Shown in pieces: positions 42,275 to 64,000 of a DNA stretch of 64,000 bases. Every line of letters starts with the position of its first letter. Position 1 is the stretch's first letter. The position numbers and the translations under genes are program-made. This DNA is from Neckera pumila (Eukaryota; Streptophyta; Bryopsida; Hypnales; Neckeraceae), in the NCBI GenBank assembly GCA_963969595.1, contig OZ018408.1, positions 45,881,022-45,945,021 on the forward strand. The letters are read 5' to 3'. Below the pieces are notes generated by a model that saw only the letters and a list, made by a program, of their open reading frames with translations, was not told the origin of the DNA and did no database searches.

Positions 42275-45200
42275 ATGGCATCATTGAGGGAGAGACACAT
42301 CAAACTGTGGATCCTAGAGAACGAGGAGGTTGATCCAAAATTGTTTGGGAAGCTAAAAGTTGGTGATGGCAAATCCTACGCGTCCTTGAGGGAGCGGTTG
42401 GAGGCTTACAATGTGTTGGATTGGCGTTTGATTTTTGGGATGTTGAAGATCGTTGTCGAATACAAAAGAAGCTTGAATCCCTCAACGATATTTTTGAAGA
42501 TGTGCATGTAATATCCTCGGGTTGCTTCAACCCTGAACCAACAAAGCGTCAAAGAGTGGAGCCTAAAACACTTGCTAATCTGGGTCTTGTGGTGGAGTTG
42601 GAAGTAGCAATGGAGATTTCTACCGTGCCCTTAGGCTCTTTCAAGATTAGTGGCAACGGTGATAGCAATGAAGATTGTGAGGTATGTTGGAAATTGACTT
42701 TCATTCGTAAAGATGTCATGGACCAATACTAAAACCAAGCTTCTATATGAGATGTGTGGGGGTATTAGTTTGACAAGTATTTGTGGGACTTTGGACTATT
42801 TTATCTTCATTTTTGGCCGGGGATATGATGAACAATGTGCTTGCAGGAATGCAACCAAGGTGGTGATAATCCAATAGCAAATTATTTAGAAGGTGATGCA
42901 ATGCCTAGGTGATGTCCCAAACCTCTTGAAATTTGTCTTTTGAAAGTAATGTTGGGGACGATGGCACATTTGGACCTTCATACATGCAAGCACTACTGAC
43001 CATTTTTCTTATTGTAGGTCTGATCATTTGTTTTACTTTTGAATAGTGGAGTTGTATTTTTCTATCTACATTTGTTGCTTCATATTTTTGAAAGATCTTA
43101 TGATGACATAGGTTTTCCAATGAAAGCTTGAGCAATGAAGCTACTTTGGACCCCAAACACAAGATCTTTTTAAGCCACAATGGAGCTCAAAAGGAGTTTG
43201 TGGAACACCTTTACAAGGCCTTGGAAGAACGGTGGTACCTTCCTTTTTTTGATCGCTGCCCTGAAAGCTTACCAATGGGTGAAAGATTTCTAGAGTTGAT
43301 CATTCAAGCTGCAGAGCGATGTGAAATGTTGATTGTGGTGGTCTCAAATGAGTATTTTATGTCGAAATGGCCCATGATCGAATTGAATGCTTTTGTAAAA
43401 GCTCATCAATTGAACCGCAAGGCAAAAGGTCCAAAGAATGGACCCAAGATTTTGCCTCTCTTTTATGGGCTTTCCGTGAAGGACTTGGAGAACAAGGCTA
43501 TGCAAAAGAAATGGTTTGAGAGTTGGGAGAAGTTGGCTGAGGATGATCCCAAGAAGCGAATTGTCGTGAGTGATTGGGAGCATGCCTTAGATGTTTTGAG
43601 GTCCTTCAATGGGTTGGAGTACGATAAGCAAAGGAAGGAGATTGTGGCTTACATAGATAAGATTGTGACCCATGTTTCCAAGTCCATTGATCCCAATATA
43701 AGGTGGCATGATTCACATGTCCAAGGCAAATCAAGTATTTGTAAGGTAACATCCACAAGCATCTCTAATTCTACTTCCCTTTTGATTTTTCTTCTTGTTG
43801 CTTTTGTAGTTTAGATCATGGGAGCCATGAACTTCCTTGAAATCTCATTGCTTTTATGAAAAGATTATAGTTTTATCCATTGAGTGAATTTGATCCAGTA
43901 GATGGATTTCTCTATTTTGTTGTGTTAGAGGTATTGGAATTTGAACCTTTTCTAGCATGTTGCACTGGTGGTATCTGTAGGCGATCCGTGTGAAGATTGG
44001 AAGCACTAGTGTTTCAAAGAAATGGAACATCAAAGTGGTTGGTATCCACGGAGTGGGTGGTATTGGCAAGACTACTACTTGCAAGACATTGTCAAATGAG
44101 TTGTTGAGGGAATATGAAGGTCGTGTGTGCTATGTTGAATTCCCAACTGTTCCTTCAAAAGACTCCGTTGAACTTCTTCGAAAAGTATTGGTAGATTTGA
44201 CAAGGAAAAGCAAGGAAGTGTTTCAAAATTGGGATGAAGGCAAGGTGAGATTGTTGATCTTGGTTTTGATGGCATTTACCAATTGAATTCAAATTATAGT
44301 AGAAAGTTTAATACATGGAGTCTAGTTTTGCTAGTTCCATGACTTTTATAAATAGTAGTTGGAGACTTTTGTTTCCTTTGATGTCTCTGCCTATGTGATA
44401 AGTTTTATATCAAGGTTTTGCACCATTGAAGGTTATCTCTTATGCTATGATATGTTTGAAATTGTGTATCAGATATGATGTGCTTATTGAACCTTTAGCT
44501 AATGTTCTGGATATTGAAGTTATTGTGAGTTCAATTGAGAGGGCTTACATTTTGATCTTTTAAATGTGAGCAGTGCAAAAGTGCTTTGTATATGAATCTT
44601 TCCAAGCAAAAAGTCTTTTTGGCAATCGACAATGTCTCTGATGACGATGAGTCAAAGAAGTATGTGAAGATGTTCTTGGGAGCTCCTTATCATAAAGAGA
44701 GTTTGGTGATTGTGACTGCTCGTTCAAAGATTATTCTTGAGCGCTTGGGGATAGATGAAGATGCATGTGTTGAGATGCCAGAGCTTGAAGAGGTGGACGC
44801 AATGAACTTGTTCTTGCACCATGCCACAGGTGGAAAGAAAATTGTTGAAGATGAAGATAAGGGTCACATATTGAAATGCATCCAAAGGTGTTATTTTTCC
44901 AAAGGAGTTGGACTTGGTTCCCATTACCATCCTTTGGCTTTGGAAGCTTTGGGTTTGCAATTGCATGACCATGGAGGGAACCCTTTGGAATGGGTTAAAA
45001 AATTGCCAAGGGTTCGAGCTTTTAGTTCTTTGTCAAGGACCAATCCAGTCGTTGACATTTTGAGGAGCAATTTCGACTTGCTAGAACCAAGTCAACAAAG
45101 CTTGTTTATAGATGTGGGGCTCTACGGCAAACTTTCTAAAGAGTATTTGGAAGTAGAAGGTTTGAAGTGGTTGTGTAACGTGCACAAGGAAGACAAGGAT

Positions 45201-47242
45201 GGAATTAGCTGTTTGGTATATCATTTGCATTTATCTTTTCCAAGTTTTGTGTACTATGATTTCCATTTCTAGTTTGAAGGCACTTTTGTTGTTCCACCTC
45301 TTAGTTGTAGTTGTCTTTGGTAATGATTGATATCCATACTTGTTGATTTTGCCTAAACTAATCCCCTTGGAATCATTTTGTCTTTGAGTTAAACATTTGA
45401 GATATTGAATAAGAGACGTAGGAGTTGGAAGTTCATAATGAGGCGTTTAACTTTAAAAGTAGCTTGAGTCCAAACAAATTGCACTATTAGCAGCACTATA
45501 ATTTCAAATGTACATTTAGATTGGGAATCCTTTGAAGTTATGGAACTCTTATGTAGGACATCTTTTGTCAAAGAAGGTAAATTGACTGAAATGGAGTTTG
45601 AAAACTAGAAGTTGATTCATTTGATTGGATTTTTGCTTTCCATCTTTTGTGATGGATTTAGAGGATGTTTTAGTCATGTAAGCCAAGTGTTTCCTAGTTT
45701 ATTGAACATATCAAAATGCACCTAATTTTCTTATGCAGTGTTGGGAGAATAGTATGTCTTACGGAGTTATTCATATTGGTGTTGGAATGGCAGTTGGAGA
45801 TTTTGAAACGCAAAGGCTTGGTGCAAGATGTGGATTTGAGAGGTTGCAAAATTAGAATGCACGATTTGTATTTGGAGTTTGCTAAATTGGAAGCAAAAGG
45901 ATCTTTCAACAAGTCAAGAAACTTAAGAATGCGGAAGTGGGTGTATGTGGACAATGGTGATCTCTCAGAGCTTGAAAGGACACCAGAGGGTAGCTGTTGG
46001 CCAGACTTGGTATGCGTTGTTATTGAACAACCCAATTTAGTTGCAGAGAACCGGTACCAATTGATGATCAAATTGCAAGATTGAAGGGAATCCAGTGGGA
46101 ACGTTTTTGCCATGTTGAGTTACTTTATTTGAGTGGGTGTCATTGGGGACATGGAACTTTCAATTTAGAGTGCTTGACGGGCTTAAGGGTTTTGTGTTTG
46201 CTTGACAATGTAGAGCTTGGTAGCCTTGAGGGCTTGGGAAAACTGACAAACCTCACCCAATTTGTTTTGAGGTCCTGTGAAGCGCGTCTGCATATTGTGG
46301 GGTGCCTTCCATTGTCGCTCAAGGTATTGAGCATAAGGGGGGATGTCATGTTCAAGTCGGACCTCCTTGCCCGATGCCACTTTTTGTTGGAACTAGAACT
46401 TAGGTGTGGAGAAGCGAGTTCTTTGTTGGATTTGAGCAATTGTGAGTCCCTAGAAAGTGTACATCTTGCTGAAATTTCAAATCTGCAACATTTGTCATTC
46501 CTCTCACCCTATCGGCCATCCAGACTACAATCTCTTGACATTGATGAGTGTGAGGATTTGGTTAGTATTCCGGGGCTTGATCACCTTATTAGCCTGAAGC
46601 GTTTATCGATTACGTATTGTTGGAAGTTGGAGGTGCCTGGTCTGCTTGCTCTTACCGACTTGCCTGATTTGGAATCAAGATTAGGAAGAAGAGAGAGTGA
46701 GAGGCTAGTTATGGGTGCACAGGATTCCATGCCACGCCAGCTTCAAGAGCTTCATTTGCATCAAGACATGGTGGGATTGAATCTCGATGGATTCAATCAA
46801 TTGGAAGTTTTGAACTTGAGTTTTAATGAGGAATTGATGTCCTTAGAAGGAGTGGGGGATTTGCCTGCATTGCGATGCCTTGACCTTTCACGACTGCTAC
46901 TGTCTCTTGCGGTTGCCCGACTTGAGTACTTCAACGAAGCTCGAAGACCTTGACCTTATCAGATGTCATGCACTTGAGCTTCATGAAGAAGATATTCAAA
47001 TGCTTTCAAAGTTGACTTTGTTGCAACCAGTGTGCCTTGCTGAGCATGACGGTTTTTGGTTGGACTTTCATCAACGGAAGGCTCTAATGCATTCATGCAA
47101 AGACCAGCATTGGGTTTTACAAAACGGGCTGCATTGGAAGAAGGAGCACGAATGGAAAGAGAGAGATCTGAACACACCTCCAATTACATTGAAAAGTGTG
47201 GCCCTATATGACAAGCAGCAATTCACAAGCGCACAAATTTAA
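42275..47242 (+). CDS. TIR-NBS-LRR receptor with an unrecognised N-terminal domain (TNL unit 2), frameshifted
   Basis: This is a predicted intracellular immune receptor. Exon 1 (42275-42681) encodes an unfamiliar domain (SLRERLEAYNVLDW, then FDFWDVEDRCRIQKKLESLN). Exon 2 is about 42848-42911 and exon 3 (43111-43746) is the TIR: IFLSHNGAQKEF, BB-loop PESLPMGER, and WPMIEL with the expected catalytic Glu. These three exons join in phase. Exon 4 (43981-44244) has the P-loop GVGGIGKTTT. Exon 5 (44574-45215) has kinase-2 FLAIDNV (Asn where Asp is usual), VTARSK and HPLALEALGL. The last exon (about 45739-47242) has RMHDLYLEF and about nine LRRs. Defects: frame breaks near 42425, 46050 and 46896, and an unsettled phase at the last splice junction. 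It is either a young pseudogene or has assembly indels. Confidence 0.85.
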
Positions 47243-56572: not shown

Positions 56573-56825
56573 CTACACAAAATAGTGAAATTAAGTTGCC
56601 TCAACAACTAGATTGTCTTATCCCAAGAAAGTTACTTTACAAGCCATCAAAGTCAACAAATACTTCTACAAATATTTCCATTTGTACACATGGAAGTTCA
56701 TGAGTTCCAATTACAATAATACCTAATCCAAAAGTACTACATTCTTGTATAGCAATAGTACATATTTACATAATATCAAATGTTGAGAAATTAGTGGGGC
56801 AGCTTAATTCTGTATCTAAAGAAAT
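56573..56825 (+). mobile_element. About 250-bp MITE, copy left of the amidase
   Basis: The left end is CTACACAAAATAGTGAAATT, then AAGTTGCCTCAACAA. The interior (CATTCTTGTAT, TACATATTTA, GAAATTAGT) aligns with the inverse of 61187-61442. The right end is diverged. It lies about 650 bp from the 3' end of the amidase. Confidence 0.65.
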
Positions 56826-57481
56826 TGCAACATTCACCAATCACCATTGCAATCAATCCTTCCGGATTAGGGCCTCCTTACATGTATCAGTAGGTGGATG
56901 CGGTCAACAATGCCGGAATATAGAAGGCACTTTTATGTTCCTTCTACAATGTGAGATGTAGAAATCGGTAGAACTCTCTTTCTTCCTTCCATGCTTACCA
57001 AGCATCAGTGGTACTAGGGATAGTCACACCTTCTCGCTCCCATGAAGGTTGAGAAGATGTGGAGAGGAAAGTGGAATCAATGAGAGCCCATTCTCCATGA
57101 AGAAGGTGTGACATCCCTTCTTCAAGCCTAAGGAGAACGAGATTGGAGAGATATAGAAATCCAGCTAAACCCAACTAAGTTTAGCTTTGAGGTCCCCAAG
57201 AAGCTTGTCTTGAAGCAGCAAGAGATCAAGTTGTCGGACCTCAGCTTAAAAAAGCCATCATACAAACTTCTTCATACTCATTCTTGTCTTGCAGAGGAGA
57301 AGGTTGAGCAATCTCAACCTTCATAGAGTGGGCACCGGTGAGACCACAGAGAGCCAATGCAAAAACGCTACATCTGGATTCCGTGAAGGTTGAGACTCCG
57401 GTGTAGAACCTGTGACTACCCCTACTGTGTTTGTCTTCTAGTTGCTTTTTCTACCCACCGGGCTCACATGTAAGCTGGCCC
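56826..57481. other. Flank between the MITE and the amidase
   Basis: Composition is mixed and I find no recognisable ORF. Short self-similar motifs (GAAGGTTGAGA and CACACCTTCT) recur near 57030-57110 and 57300-57390. The shift to high GC occurs near 57475-57490, at the amidase stop codon. Confidence 0.4.
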
Positions 57482-58884
57482 TTAGATGTCCGGGTGAAGG
57501 TCGCGAACAGGGCTTGCCGTTTCCAGAAGCGCAGCGAGATGCAGAATCGTCGACTCCGCCAACCAGCTAGATACCAACTGCACCCCGATCGGCAATCCGT
57601 CCCGACTCGTGCCGAACCTGATCGACAACCCCGGAAGCCCTGTCACGTTGAGCGGAACGGTCGCGCCTTGTATCTGCACGGCGGGCACCGACTGGCCATT
57701 GATGACGATTTCCGACAACCCATGTGCGTGTGCGGGAATAGGCAGCACGGGGCAAAGCAGCGCGTCGTAGTGCTGGAAATACTCGACGAAGCCGTCCTTG
57801 AGGCGCTCCGCCGCCTGCTCCGCGAGAATGAAGTCGCCCATAGGCGTGTCGGGCGTCGCAAGCATACCCTTGGCAATCTTGAACATCTCGTTTTCGTGGC
57901 CGGTCGTCGCCTCCACGAAAGCGAGCTTCATTTCCATCACGTGCAGGCGATTGAATACATCGAGGGCATTATCCCGCTCGAGCGCCGGAATGCGCACGGG
58001 CTCCACGAGGCAGCCGGCACTATGAAGCGCCTCGGCCGCCGCCTGCACTGTCGCCGCAACCTCGGCGTCGATCGGGCCTAAGCCGGGCTCAACCAACCAA
58101 CCCACCCGAAGCGGTCGATCCGGCGAGGCTCCCACCCCTGCGTCGAACCCGAGGGGGGTCGTGGAAAAGCCATCGGCACCGTCCGGCCCGGCAAGAATCG
58201 AATAGGTCAACGCGATGTCGCGAACGCTGCGCGCCATTAGGCCGACGTGCCAGAAGCGACTTGGCACCCGCGGCCAGAGTCCCGTCATTGGGAGTTGCCC
58301 ATGCGTGGCCTTGAAGCCAATGATGCCGGTATGCGCCGCCGGGCCGCGTATGGAGATGGCGAGGTCGCTGCCGAGGCCGAGCGGCGACATGCCCGCTGCG
58401 CCGCCGACTCTCCGCCGCTTGAACCGCCTGGCGTGCGCTCGAGATTCCAGGGGTTGTTCGCCCTTCCAGTGAGCAGGTTGTCGGTTTCAGTCGAGTAGGA
58501 AAATTCCGGAAGGTTCGTCTTCGCAATCAGGATTGCACCGGCGCTCTTGAGGCGCGCAACGCTGGTGGCATCCGTCTCGGGCATGCGGCCCTTAAAGATC
58601 GGCGAGCCGCGTTGGGTCAACACCCCTGCGGTGTCGATCGAATCCTTCGCCGTGAAGGGCACCCCATGCAGAGGGCCGAGTGCATCCCCGGCCAGAACCG
58701 CTGCCTCCGCCGCCCTCGCGTCTTGGAGCGCGCTGTCCACAACGGTGACGATGGCGTTGAGCTTAGGATTGACGGCTGCGATGCGATCAAGGTGCGCCTG
58801 CACGACCTCGACCGGAGACACCTCGCGAGTGCGAATCAGTTCAGCCAGCTTTGTTGCGTCGGAATAAATGATCTTTGACGTCAT
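57482..58884 (-). CDS. Bacterial-type amidase (amidase signature family), one frameshift
   Basis: This is a predicted amide hydrolase of the amidase signature family (Ser-cisSer-Lys triad). The start is ATG at 58884 (MTSKIIYSDATKLAELI); the frame stays open upstream, but bacterial similarity fades there. Motifs: GPLHGVPFTAKDS with the catalytic Lys at about residue 80; the Gly/Ser-rich TPGGSSGGES at about 151-160 with the cis-Ser; SDLAISIRGPA with the nucleophilic Ser near 178; and a C-terminal half with NVTGLPGLSI and GLPIGVQLV. One base is missing near 58391-58396, after the cis-Ser motif. With one base added the ORF is 1404 nt, or 467 residues, the usual family length. GC content is far above the flanks, and there is no intron. 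The substrate is unknown; indoleacetamide hydrolases belong to this family but I cannot assign that. The frameshift may be real or an assembly error. Confidence 0.92.
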
Positions 58885-60990
58885 GTTGCACCTAATCTCT
58901 ACCTGCCACTTGGTAGACAGCACATAGATGTTCAAATTTGCCCATCTGTTCAAACATCATAGCTCGATTCTCGTGTCCAACGTTAACTCCTCGAAGACGG
59001 GAGTTTGGAAGTAGGCGAACCCGCAGGCACTTAAAATTTACCAAGATAAAGGATCCTTCTCCCGTACAGTACTCGACAGAGGTGCGCAAAGCCGCAAACT
59101 CATCAACGTCATTGGCTTCAAAGAAGAACTACTCTTAAACGATCACAAATTCGGTGCATGCTAGTTACTCTCACAAATTGAATTGCAAGCTCAAGGAATT
59201 CAGGTTAACCATCCAATACAGACAGTTCGAAATTGCAACCGATTCAAAACCAAGCCAAACAACGGCAATGTCTTTAAGGGTAAAACTGCAAACACAGAAT
59301 CTCACTTTCACGGAATTCGGAATTCGGAATGGTGCAAGGATTCGGAATTCGAAATTTACCAGCAGCAGTCAAATAAGAGTGAGCCCATATAATACAACCA
59401 TTTAGGACATTGTGTTAAACTTGCCACTCAATCAACGATTCTATAAGAAGCATGGAAAGTGAACAAGTCGATGTAAACTGGGCTTCTACTCTTTCAACAC
59501 CAGTTACGCGGATTTTGTGGATCGCACTTCGCTTGAGCTGTTTTGTACGAAAACGAACAGGTGAGCAGAGCGGGTAGAATCAGTAGTAAAGGTCACTCAG
59601 AATCTCACAATTTCTCACATGGAATATAATTTCACAAGGATACAGGCAAAAGGATCGCGGTTTCGCCTACTTCCATCATTCTTACAGAAAACTGGTGCGA
59701 GTGAGCAACTGAGCATAACAGTTTCTGAATTAAAATAATCAATAGTAGGGCACTTTGTAACCAATTAGGGCACCACGTGACTCACTCACTAATGCCATTC
59801 AATCATTCAAAAATGAAGCCTACAAGATAGTACTTCTTTCTGAATTGTCCGATCTTCAACCTGAATGACGTCCTTAACAAATGCTTTCAACCCACACTAT
59901 CATCTGTTAAGGACTTTATTCAGGTTGCAAACAGGAAAATTCTGAAAAGGACCCCTATCTCCTAGCCTTCATTCTCCAAGGGACGTCTTCCTAACGAGGT
60001 CCTGAACCTGAATTTGCTGGGGTAAGTACGACGGTTAGTGTAAATAACCTTCAGCGGTAACAGAGTCTCACCGACAGTAAACATAGCGGCCATTTCCACA
60101 AACTAGGTCTGGTGACAAAGATTAAAAGTCATAGCCACTCCTCGCAAACGAACAGTCACTTAAGAACGCTAATATCCACCGCAAATGGGAATCTTACAGA
60201 CAAAAGTTCTCGACAGAAACAATCGCTTGCTTCTTCAAGAACGTGCTACACACTTCTCGGCAGGCTTCTCGGCAGGCTTCGACCTCTAACCCCGTTCGCA
60301 ATGTAACGTCCTAATTTTCATTCGAGAGCAACGATTGAATCATCATCGCAAAACGCATTTCAATAGTACGACGTTCGAAGAATCTCAAAAGAGTATCTAG
60401 TTGGAGATTCCATAGCCACACCCATATTTGAAACCAAGAGTAAGAGGACATGGCTATAGTGGCCATGGTGGCCAAGGTGACAACAGGAAGTAAGGTTGGG
60501 GAGGCTTACCAGAATTGAGTAAACCCAGGCGGATCACAAACGCGGACAACGCGCATCGGCAGCCCCGAAATCGACCACTGCAAATTCGGACGTGATTCGT
60601 CGTGATCGCACCAGCTGCTCGTAACCCTGCTCCAAATATCCGGCCAAATTCGTCCGCGTCCACGATCCAACAAGACGCAATACCAGAAATAGGACACTGA
60701 CGAGACACGACGAGATTCAATAAAGCTTAGGATCTACTAGAGGACCCCAAAAAGTTCTCGTACGTGTTGATCTCATCGACCTTTGGTTTTTATAAAATTC
60801 ACTAGGTTCCTGTATCCTTTGGATAGGACTTTATCAGCTTCAGTGCCCAACAGAAATGGTGTTCTTCTTGAGTAAATGCATCACATCCTTCGATTCAATC
60901 GTTAGTTTAAATTTGCGTCTTTAGTAGCTCAGATTGCAAAATTTCTTTCGATGACCTGCAGGGAGTGATCATGATACATGGCTAGAAAAT
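58885..60990. other. Flank of the amidase, no recognised gene
   Basis: Composition falls from the high GC of the amidase to intermediate values, with no protein family in any frame. The sequence is non-repetitive within the window. The minus-strand open frame at 60454-60720 has coding-like composition, but I cannot place it in a family. Confidence 0.4.
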
Positions 60991-61186: not shown

Positions 61187-61442
61187 TTACACAAAAATAG
61201 TGAAATTAGGTTGTCCTATACTAATTTCTTGACTTTGAACACTATATAAATATGTATAGTCAGTACAAAAGAATGCAGTAATGAAGGAACTATATGTATT
61301 GTATGGGTTGGTACACTATTCATGGCTCGGATTTAGAGAATTACATGCGCCTCCATGTGGACAAGCAATGGCTCATGAGCTAAATTCTGTCAGTGAAGGC
61401 AACCTAATTGTTGAGGCAACCCAATTTCACTATTTTGTGTAG
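61187..61442 (-). mobile_element. About 250-bp MITE, copy right of the amidase, inverted
   Basis: The left end TTACACAAAAATAGTGAAAT faces the right end ATTTCACTATTTTGTGTAG as a terminal inverted repeat. The interior aligns with the inverse of 56573-56825. I see no clear target duplication. Confidence 0.75.
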
Positions 61443-62277: not shown

Positions 62278-62361
62278 TGCTTCCTCTGTCTCAAAATAAG
62301 ACCAATGTTTCCTTTGTATTTTTACAAAAGAAACACCAGTCTTATTTTGAGACAGAGGGAG
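62278..62361. mobile_element. Stowaway-like MITE, about 85 bp
   Basis: The terminal inverted repeats are CTTCCTCTGTCTCAAAATAA and its inverse TTATTTTGAGACAGAGGGAG, flanked by TA on both sides. This terminus is typical of Stowaway (Tc1/mariner) MITEs in plants. The interior is a short hairpin loop. Confidence 0.8.
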
Positions 62362-63203: not shown

Positions 63204-64000
63204 TCATGCAGCATTTGCAGGGCCGGTCATTCTGAAAATGAAGCCGTTGGAAAATGTCGGGAGGTCCAAATCTTTGTGACTGGGACTCAAAGGCTGCCGA
63301 AACGGATTCACTTGCACTGGAATCGCAAAACCAGGGGGACTTCCCAGCGATAAATATTGAATCGTCTGCACAGCCATGACCGCGGCCTCCTCGCAGTAGT
63401 CGGTGAAAACGGCGGGCACATTCAGCGACTCGATCAGTCGCAGAGTGGGGTGCCAGCTCGAGAAAGCAGCAAGACCTGCATTGGCTGCAAAGATCAGATC
63501 AGGAGGGCATCCCAGCTCTGCGTGTCGATCATGATAGAGCCCCCTCCACAGCCTCATCGTTAAGCCACCCTTGGACAGAACCGAATCCCTGTTCTTGCAT
63601 GCACAGTCGACATCAGAGCAACGACAGAAAGTGGAGAATTCAAGGCTCTCCCCATCCCGGAACACTGGCACTGCAGGCCCAACGAAGTCGATGTGGAATG
63701 GTGTTCCGGGAAAGAGCGCTATCAGCTCGGCAAAAGCGGGCAGCTGGGCCAACTCTCGCTCGGGACCCAAATAGTGCACACGCAAGGACTTAGGGTTTCG
63801 GATTGGCGACTGAGATATGCACATGGCGTGGTACAGAGACAGCGGCCAATGCAAGATTAGGGCAACGGGTGAGTCGAACGGAAGGCCTCGCCAATTGTAA
63901 AACTCCTCCCAGCTCTGCAGCTCACTTGGTGGTGAATTCTCCGGAGGTCTGCACGGGCAGGAACTGGCCGGAAGATTCCAATCCCCATTCACCTGGCGCG
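63204..64000 (-). CDS. MSS51 C-terminal-domain protein (zinc-finger MYND-like relatives), 5' end outside the window
   Basis: The frame is open from the window edge to TGA at 63204-63206. The sequence fits the 'mitochondrial splicing suppressor 51-like, C-terminal' domain found in plant and animal MYND-zinc-finger relatives. It has WEEFYNWRGLPFDSPVALIL, the LPLSLYHAM-like stretch, VHYLGPERELAQLP, ELIALFPGTPFHIDFVGPAV, then FAANAGLAAFSSWHPTLRLI, VFTDYCEEAA, and a C-terminal NPFRQPL and SNGFIFRM. The first visible bases (GCCAGGTGAATGG) could be an exon start, since an AG precedes GTGAATGG, so the first visible codon need not be the initiator. Function in plants is not established. No frame break lies in the visible part. 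Confidence 0.82.
   Translation of the reverse strand, partial: RQVNGDWNLPASSCPCRPPENSPPSELQSWEEFYNWRGLPFDSPVALILHWPLSLYHAMCISQSPIRNPKSLRVHYLGPERELAQLPAFAELIALFPGTPFHIDFVGPAVPVFRDGESLEFSTFCRCSDVDCACKNRDSVLSKGGLTMRLWRGLYHDRHAELGCPPDLIFAANAGLAAFSSWHPTLRLIESLNVPAVFTDYCEEAAVMAVQTIQYLSLGSPPGFAIPVQVNPFRQPLSPSHKDLDLPTFSNGFIFRMTGPANAA

What the first reader, a model, noticed from the sequence alone, without database searches (positions are those of the whole stretch)
57482..58884. Bacterial-type amidase embedded in plant DNA: likely horizontal transfer
Seen: a GC-rich, intronless frame with all three amidase-signature catalytic motifs lies in AT-rich DNA whose flanks carry plant repeats (MITEs on both sides, a Stowaway 3.4 kb away). 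Known: genes of this kind without introns are typical of Proteobacteria. Inference: a recent transfer into the nuclear genome, with one later frameshift. A contaminant contig would have bacterial flanks, which it does not.
Basis: partly seen in the sequence, partly recalled or inferred. Interest (0 to 1): 0.85.

Follow-up and report, generated by a model that had tools for sequence, protein, structure and literature searches.

The report
Broken bacterial amidase in moss chromosome
A probable moss chromosome carries one bacterial enzyme gene, now broken, sitting just behind a copy of the control region of a moss kinase gene and with a moss jumping element in its stop codon, which argues for a real gene transfer rather than contamination.

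Summary
On the minus strand, ATG 58884 to stop 57482, lies a 62.9% GC amidase-signature gene split by a net 4-base loss; its C-terminal piece is 92% identical to the nearest protein found (source unnamed), and named relatives are bacterial. The host, most likely a moss, holds it once in 339.5 Mb. Both junctions look native. Left: a Tourist-like MITE with other copies in the genome ends beside the amidase stop codon, with TTA on both sides, the right TTA being that stop codon; so it jumped into, or to the border of, bacterial DNA already there. Right: from 58944 to 60689 the DNA is a copy (90.8% at aligned columns) of the stretch lying 166 bases upstream of a calcium-dependent kinase gene on another contig, in the same transcription direction as the amidase and 59 bases before its ATG. 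Between lies a TetR-type operator kept from bacteria. Ser179 is out of frame with Lys80 and cis-Ser, so no active enzyme is expected. Best reading: a fairly young bacterium-to-moss transfer joined to a duplicated moss gene front, then lost. Transfers into mosses are known. Open: donor, age, expression, read support, and whether two unnamed proteins are moss orthologues.

The parts
57482..58884 (-). bacterial-type amidase-signature gene, broken by a net 4-base loss (ATG at 58884, TAA at 57484-57482)
   Evidence: Pfam PF01425 on both pieces; 84% DNA identity to L001
58285..58884 (-). N-terminal reading frame: about 160 amidase residues, then a frameshifted tail, stop TGA starting at 58287; holds Lys80 and the GGSSGG serines
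57482..58390 (-). C-terminal reading frame (302 aa) with Ser179; 92% identical to P0001
58391..58410 (-). zone of the frameshift, between the GGSSGG motif and the C-piece methionine (net 4 bases fewer than L001)
   Evidence: alignment; positions
58899..58916 (-). TetR-type operator CTACCAAGTGGCAGGTAG, ending 14 bases before the ATG
   Evidence: 0 expected in 100 shuffles of the window; looser form of it upstream of the amidase in L008, L009, L011, L017, L018, L083
58944..60719 (-). copy of the region upstream of a calcium-dependent protein kinase gene on contig C8, in the same transcription direction as the amidase; its end at 58944 marks the right junction, 59 bases before the amidase ATG (58944-60689 aligned; 60691-60719 a further 29-base match)
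   Evidence: kinase gene
56870..57481 (.). outer Tourist/PIF-Harbinger-like MITE with a nested insert; TIRs GGGCCTCCTTACATGT / ACATGTAAGCTGGCCC
   Evidence: inverted repeat I4; four other copies without the insert
57015..57424 (.). inner MITE-like repeat nested in the outer MITE; termini about TAGGGRTAGTCACA / TGTGACTACCCCTA
   Evidence: 32 other places of 345 bases or more listed; 40 of 713 candidates scored; ends
56867..56869 (+). left copy of the TTA target-site duplication
57482..57484 (+). right copy of the TTA target-site duplication = amidase stop codon (TAA on the minus strand)
63204..63998 (-). host gene exon on the right, MSS51 C-terminal domain (PF20179)
   Evidence: E 1.5e-40
43107..46953 (+). 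host TIR and LRR exons of a TNL-type receptor gene, nearest to moss (Ceratodon purpureus) proteins

Best explanation
A bacterial DNA fragment (right end at 58943, give or take a few bases; left end hidden behind a MITE at 57482; about 1.46 kb: operator, start region and whole coding sequence of a TetR-regulated amidase-signature hydrolase) was joined into the nuclear genome of a moss lineage. On its upstream side it abuts a roughly 1.75 kb copy of the region upstream of a host calcium-dependent kinase gene, in the right direction to drive the amidase; either both pieces were joined in one break-repair event, or the bacterial piece landed at the edge of an existing copy (mechanism inferred). 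The gene may therefore have been transcribed from a moss promoter for a time (inferred; upstream ATGs would hamper translation). Later a Tourist-like MITE moved into the TTA of the amidase stop codon, a second MITE-like repeat landed inside it, and a net 4-base loss between the cis-Ser motif and the nucleophile Ser destroyed the enzyme; the order of frameshift and MITE is unknown. In bacterial ancestors the enzyme would hydrolyse an amide (substrate unknown) under a divergent TetR repressor (inferred from gene order and operator). Shown: gene identity, break, single copy, MITE with target duplication, operator, paralogous host segment. Inferred: direction of transfer, mechanism, expression, recency, loss of activity.
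For: Pfam and homologues. In a tree of 112 rows (C piece and 111 proteins; those with a source name are bacterial, most have none) the C piece is sister to P0001+P0061 at 100/97. One copy in the 339.5 Mb genome; the other matches to P0001 there are two stretches on C10 (34%, 46%) whose best NCBIfam model is gatA. The outer MITE ends at 57481 with TTA on both sides; by reading, three of the four other outer copies have matching 3-base TWA borders and one TAA/TAC. The right flank has a single paralogue (2 of 2 candidates scored: itself and C8): 86.5% with gaps over 1751 positions, 1516 of 1669 aligned bases identical, beginning at 58944 and ending 166 bases before the kinase ATG. Operator; divergent TetR gene 62-70% identical to that of L083 or L084 in seven genome loci, annotated as TetR/AcrR in plasmid loci L083 and L084. 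GC3 75.1% and pairwise dN/dS 0.17 to L001. 6 of 8 window departures at near-invariant protein sites fit C>T/G>A, against 93 of 286 in relatives (Fisher p 0.019).
Against: No reads across either junction could be seen. 8 departures at near-invariant sites is not extreme: 3 of 111 relatives have as many or more. DNA-level tests are not significant: GC>AT to AT>GC 46:4 in the window lineage against 23:6 in L001 (p 0.16), CpG transitions 15 of 64 against 5 of 43 (p 0.14), codon positions 1+2 27 of 64 against 18 of 43 (p 1.0). The N-piece tree is unresolved. Bacterial sequence beyond the MITE is only hinted (a few bases shared with L001). That the kinase upstream copy is a working promoter is untested; four upstream ATGs (58960, 58957, 58945, 58925) open short frames that stop before the amidase ATG. 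No kinase coding remnant was found in the window or about 10 kb to its right, so the copy may be a passive scrap.
Confidence: 0.86

Rival explanations
1. Older transfer: a moss ancestor acquired the amidase, other mosses keep it intact (perhaps P0001 and P0061), and this species has lost it recently.
For: The two proteins closest in the tree come only from the source 'lgn', on short contigs (up to 2.5 kb), with no name, so a plant origin is not excluded. P0061 has the most departures at near-invariant sites of all rows, 11. Pairwise dN/dS looks like that of a working gene. The gene stands behind a host gene's upstream region, as a domesticated gene would.
Against: Departures of P0061 and P0001 do not lean to C>T/G>A (1 of 8 and 2 of 5, against 5 of 7 in the window). 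GC3 remains 75%.
Confidence: 0.13
2. Assembly chimera or bacterial contaminant joined to moss DNA.
For: Contamination is a real problem in moss assemblies (PMC11228847, passages and section 33). No reads were available.
Against: A mis-join would have to fall exactly at a MITE end and create a TTA pair with the stop codon, and also occur at the edge of a host paralogue, both around a 1.46 kb piece; no N in the window; the gene is broken.
Confidence: 0.03
3. Natural Agrobacterium T-DNA (cT-DNA) insertion.
For: Agrobacterium plasmids carry a relative of this amidase at 68-69% DNA identity.
Against: No T-DNA border-like sequence in the window at up to 3 mismatches (consensus recalled); the Agrobacterium copies are much less similar than L001.
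Confidence: 0.02

Closest known systems
Bacterial amidase-signature hydrolases (PF01425; best NCBIfam models PRK06169 for the C piece, PRK07487 for the N piece) next to a TetR gene
   Same: Sequence, length, catalytic motifs, operator before the gene
   Different: Frame broken, no TetR gene, in a probable moss chromosome; none of the NCBIfam models shown reaches its cut-off with either piece
Microbe-to-moss transfers (NAS genes, PMC12454661; Physcomitrium and Physcomitrellopsis candidates, PMC11228847)
   Same: Microbial gene flanked by moss genes
   Different: The NAS genes are inherited across moss lineages and linked to a metallophore found in moss samples; this one is single, broken, keeps a bacterial operator and abuts a copied host upstream region
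Promoter capture after organelle-to-nucleus gene transfer (recalled, not looked up)
   Same: Foreign coding sequence placed behind a nuclear gene's upstream region
   Different: Donor is a bacterium, and the upstream region is a transposed copy; expression untested
Tourist / PIF-Harbinger MITEs
   Same: Short, GGGCC-type TIRs, 3-base TWA target duplication, dispersed copies
   Different: This copy lies in the stop codon of a foreign gene and carries a nested MITE-like repeat
cT-DNA of naturally transgenic plants (recalled)
   Same: Bacterial DNA in plant nuclear genomes
   Different: No border sequence found, different gene

Membership tests
Amidase signature family (PF01425) | Pfam profile match above the gathering score | tested here: met
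   148.7 and 159.4 bits against 27
Amidase signature family (PF01425) | Lys / cis-Ser / Ser in one polypeptide | tested here: not met
   Residues present, but Ser179 lies in another frame than Lys80 and cis-Ser: a derelict gene of the family, not a working member
Bacterium-to-plant transfer | Gene nested among bacterial sequences | tested here: met
   Tree of 112 rows; sources of the two closest rows, P0001 and P0061, unknown
Bacterium-to-plant transfer | Host DNA on both sides on the same contig | tested here: met
   MITEs left; paralogue of a host gene's upstream region right; MSS51_C and TNL exons further out; no N
Bacterium-to-plant transfer | Reads spanning both junctions | not testable with these tools
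   no reads held
Bacterium-to-plant transfer | Inherited: present in other individuals or species | not testable with these tools
   no relatives of this genome held
Promoter capture by a foreign gene | Upstream region of a host gene directly before the foreign gene, same direction | tested here: met
   58944-60689 copies the stretch 166 bases before a kinase ATG on C8
Promoter capture by a foreign gene | Transcription of the foreign gene from that region | not testable with these tools
   no RNA data held
Tourist / PIF-Harbinger-like MITE | Terminal inverted repeats and 3-base TWA target duplication | tested here: met
   TTA/TTA here; family rule recalled
Tourist / PIF-Harbinger-like MITE | Dispersed copies in the genome | tested here: met
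   four other copies without the inner insert
Tourist / PIF-Harbinger-like MITE | Related autonomous transposase | not tested
   not searched
TetR-regulated amidase unit | Operator upstream of the gene | tested here: met
   binding not tested
TetR-regulated amidase unit | Divergent TetR gene | tested here: not met
   no significant TetR match in 58885-60884 (best E 0.18)
cT-DNA | T-DNA border repeats | tested here: not met
   0 matches at up to 3 mismatches

The most novel reading that the evidence does not exclude
Natural promoter capture: the bacterial coding sequence, with its own operator still attached, was fused behind a duplicated upstream region of a moss calcium-dependent kinase gene, worked as a moss gene for some time (and may still be intact in other mosses, as P0001 or P0061), and was then broken; the locus preserves the whole life cycle of a transferred gene.
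Probability: 0.3. Interest if true: 0.75.

Novelty: new member of a known kind. Interest (0 to 1): 0.6.

Why it matters
Reported microbe-to-plant transfers are, to my knowledge (recalled), mostly genes that survived selection. A single, already broken insertion with both junctions readable, a bacterial control site, a copied host gene front and a transposon-stamped stop codon is a fossil of a failed or abandoned transfer. Counting such fossils would give the raw rate at which bacterial DNA enters plant germ lines, and the copied gene front shows one way a bacterial gene could be switched on at once in a plant.

Tried and rejected
cT-DNA: rejected. Transduplication inside the MITE: the gene lies outside its ends and occurs once. 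Second operator at the 54-base spacing seen in L008, L009 and L011: absent in the window by reading; the host copy begins there. Large segmental duplication between C1 and C8: a 22.9 kb stretch of C8 against the window plus 9.9 kb shows only the 1.75 kb upstream copy as a strong match; 21 other matches (69-84%) are scattered, not collinear, and look like dispersed repeats; no kinase coding match in C1 there, and no kinase match near 45.9 Mb of C1 among 70 scored of 492 candidates. Long neutral decay: DNA tests not significant. tRNA and Rfam scans of the window: nothing. Papers: one search listed 20 of 60, 9 of 10, 3 of 3, 15 of 17, 10 of 19, 12 of 26, 0; none of the titles and abstract starts listed describes this amidase in a moss or a bacterial gene behind a copied plant gene front. 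Passages read in PMC12454661 and PMC11228847 plus section 33 of the latter; 'amidase' does not occur in either main text.

Also mended: operator 14 (not 15) bases before the ATG; one operator locus is a Verrucomicrobiota MAG.

Full report
What is there. On the minus strand, from ATG 58884 to TAA 57484-57482, lies a GC-rich (62.9% over 57482-58916) amidase-signature gene in a 37.7% GC window. Two reading frames each match PF01425 far above the cut-off. Against the bacterial contig L001 the DNA aligns over 1442 positions at 84%, from 32 bases before the ATG to the stop codon, with a 4-base gap between the GGSSGG motif and the following methionine. A 4-base, non-homopolymer loss is not a usual sequencing error (inference). 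Lys80 and the cis-Ser motif lie in the first frame, Ser179 in the second, so neither product holds the catalytic triad (triad recalled).

Host. The window is G000:C1:45881022-45945021, in an assembly of 339.5 Mb and 18 contigs; C1 is 52.8 Mb. A joined query of three exons of a TIR-type receptor gene hit 66 proteins (7997 candidates scored), 63 of them Ceratodon purpureus, at 29-51% identity over all 66. So the host is most likely a moss other than Ceratodon; the species is unknown. To the right lies an MSS51_C exon at 63204-63998. Other matches to P0001 in this genome are two stretches on C10 (34% and 46%; 13 of 13 candidates scored) whose best NCBIfam model is gatA, separated by a 39% GC stretch that reads as an intron.

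Origin. The protein search gave 3968 matches among 7998 scored candidates; 120 were listed. The best is P0001 (92%, source 'lgn', no name), then many at 86-88% from metagenomes; named ones include Pseudomonas, Paenibacillus sabinae, Duganella aceris and a Mycobacterium MAG. In a maximum-likelihood tree of 112 rows (C piece plus the 111 of 120 listed proteins with at least 440 residues) it is sister to P0001+P0061 at 100/97. The N piece is unresolved (quick tree, 61 rows). GC at third codon positions is 75.1%, inside the range of the 23 bacterial loci compared (63-95%); pairwise dN/dS to L001 is 0.17.

Bacterial control site. Fourteen bases before the ATG ends CTACCAAGTGGCAGGTAG (58899-58916); shuffles gave 0 matches. 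A looser form lies upstream of the amidase in L008, L009, L011, L017, L018 and L083 (five proteobacterial loci and a Verrucomicrobiota MAG); of the 108 loci held then, 8 matched, the other two being the window's own DNA. In L007, L008, L009, L011, L017, L018 and L021 a gene 62-70% identical to the TetR protein of L083 or L084 lies divergently just upstream; it is annotated TetR/AcrR in L083 and L084. The actinobacterial upstream regions that I read look different. In the window no TetR gene is found in 58885-60884.

Left junction. The left flank holds an outer MITE (56870-57481) with 16-base TIRs and a nested repeat (57015-57424). Four places hold the outer element without the nested one (86-89% over 205-210 bases), and 32 other listed places hold 345 bases or more of the nested one (40 of 713 candidates scored, so lower bounds). 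By reading, three of the four outer copies have matching 3-base borders (TAA; TTA, after one changed terminal base; TTA) and one TAA/TAC. In the window TTA stands at 56867-56869 and 57482-57484; the right one is the amidase stop codon, aligned to the stop codons of L001 and of the Phyllobacterium partial copy L082. The simplest reading is that the MITE moved into the stop codon of bacterial DNA already in the chromosome. Beyond the MITE the first bases in coding sense (TCCGGAAGG) resemble L001 (CCGGGAAGG), too short to be proof; further left the DNA is 32% GC.

Right junction. The genome search of 58885-60400 found one other place, on C8 (2 of 2 candidates scored). The match runs from window 58944 to 60689 (86.5% with gaps over 1751 positions; 1516 of 1669 aligned bases identical, 90.8%), with 29 more bases at 60691-60719. 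On C8 it ends 166 bases before the ATG of an intronless 628-residue frame with a protein kinase domain and EF hands, that is, a calcium-dependent protein kinase. So the right flank of the amidase is a copy of this gene's upstream region, pointing the same way as the amidase, and 59 bases separate it from the amidase ATG. No kinase coding sequence is found in the window or 9.9 kb to its right. The divergence of 0.098 (JC) would correspond to about 5-10 million years at 5e-9 to 1e-8 per site and year (rates recalled); this dates the copy, and the fusion only if both happened at once. Four upstream ATGs open frames that stop before the amidase ATG.

Age of decay. At 261 near-invariant protein sites (163 in C, 98 in N) the window departs 8 times; the 111 relatives depart 2.6 times on average and 3 of 111 at least 8 times. 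Six of the eight fit C>T or G>A, against 93 of 286 in relatives (p 0.019). With a stricter cut the window has 5 of 7. The excess of about 5 over roughly 590 non-synonymous positions (my estimate) is near 1%, or one to two million years at the same recalled rates; a rough guide, since part of the branch is bacterial. DNA-level tests on substitution type and codon position are not significant.

Verdict. A true and fairly young bacterium-to-moss transfer that has died, joined on its upstream side to a copy of a moss kinase gene's front. Transfers into mosses are documented (PMC12454661, passages; PMC11228847, passages and section 33, which reports that about 91 of 273 candidates of Physcomitrium patens were not found in two related species). 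What this case adds is readable anatomy: operator kept, regulator missing, host upstream region copied in front, frame broken, stop codon stamped by a MITE. Open: donor, expression, read support, and whether P0001 and P0061 are bacterial or moss.

Noticed in passing
window 57015-57424 within 56870-57481: Nested repeats: a roughly 410-base MITE-like family inside a roughly 205-base Tourist-like element; both dispersed over the genome.
   Followed up: partly
window 58937-58946: The bases at the right junction in coding sense, ATGGGCAA, equal the first eight of the kinase start (ATGGGCAAC) 166 bases further on C8; it may be chance or mark a deletion within the copied gene front. Seen after the fact.
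   Followed up: no
window 62280-62361: Palindromic Stowaway-like element, read by eye.
   Followed up: no
window 56573-56619 and 61396-61442: 47-base inverted repeat pair at 89% identity on either side of the amidase.
   Followed up: no
L008, L009, L011, about 25-90 bases before the amidase: Two TetR-type operators exactly 54 bases apart between the divergent TetR gene and the amidase, in two Bradyrhizobium loci and a Verrucomicrobiota MAG.
   Followed up: partly
L082 2001-2565: A Phyllobacterium plasmid holds only part of the amidase gene (query 946-1523) at 83% identity to the window: it seems to decay in bacteria too.
   Followed up: partly
L001 2116-3522: A Mycobacterium MAG contig carries the named relative closest in DNA among the loci fetched, with no TetR match and no match to the operator pattern: this amidase moves between bacterial phyla.
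   Followed up: partly
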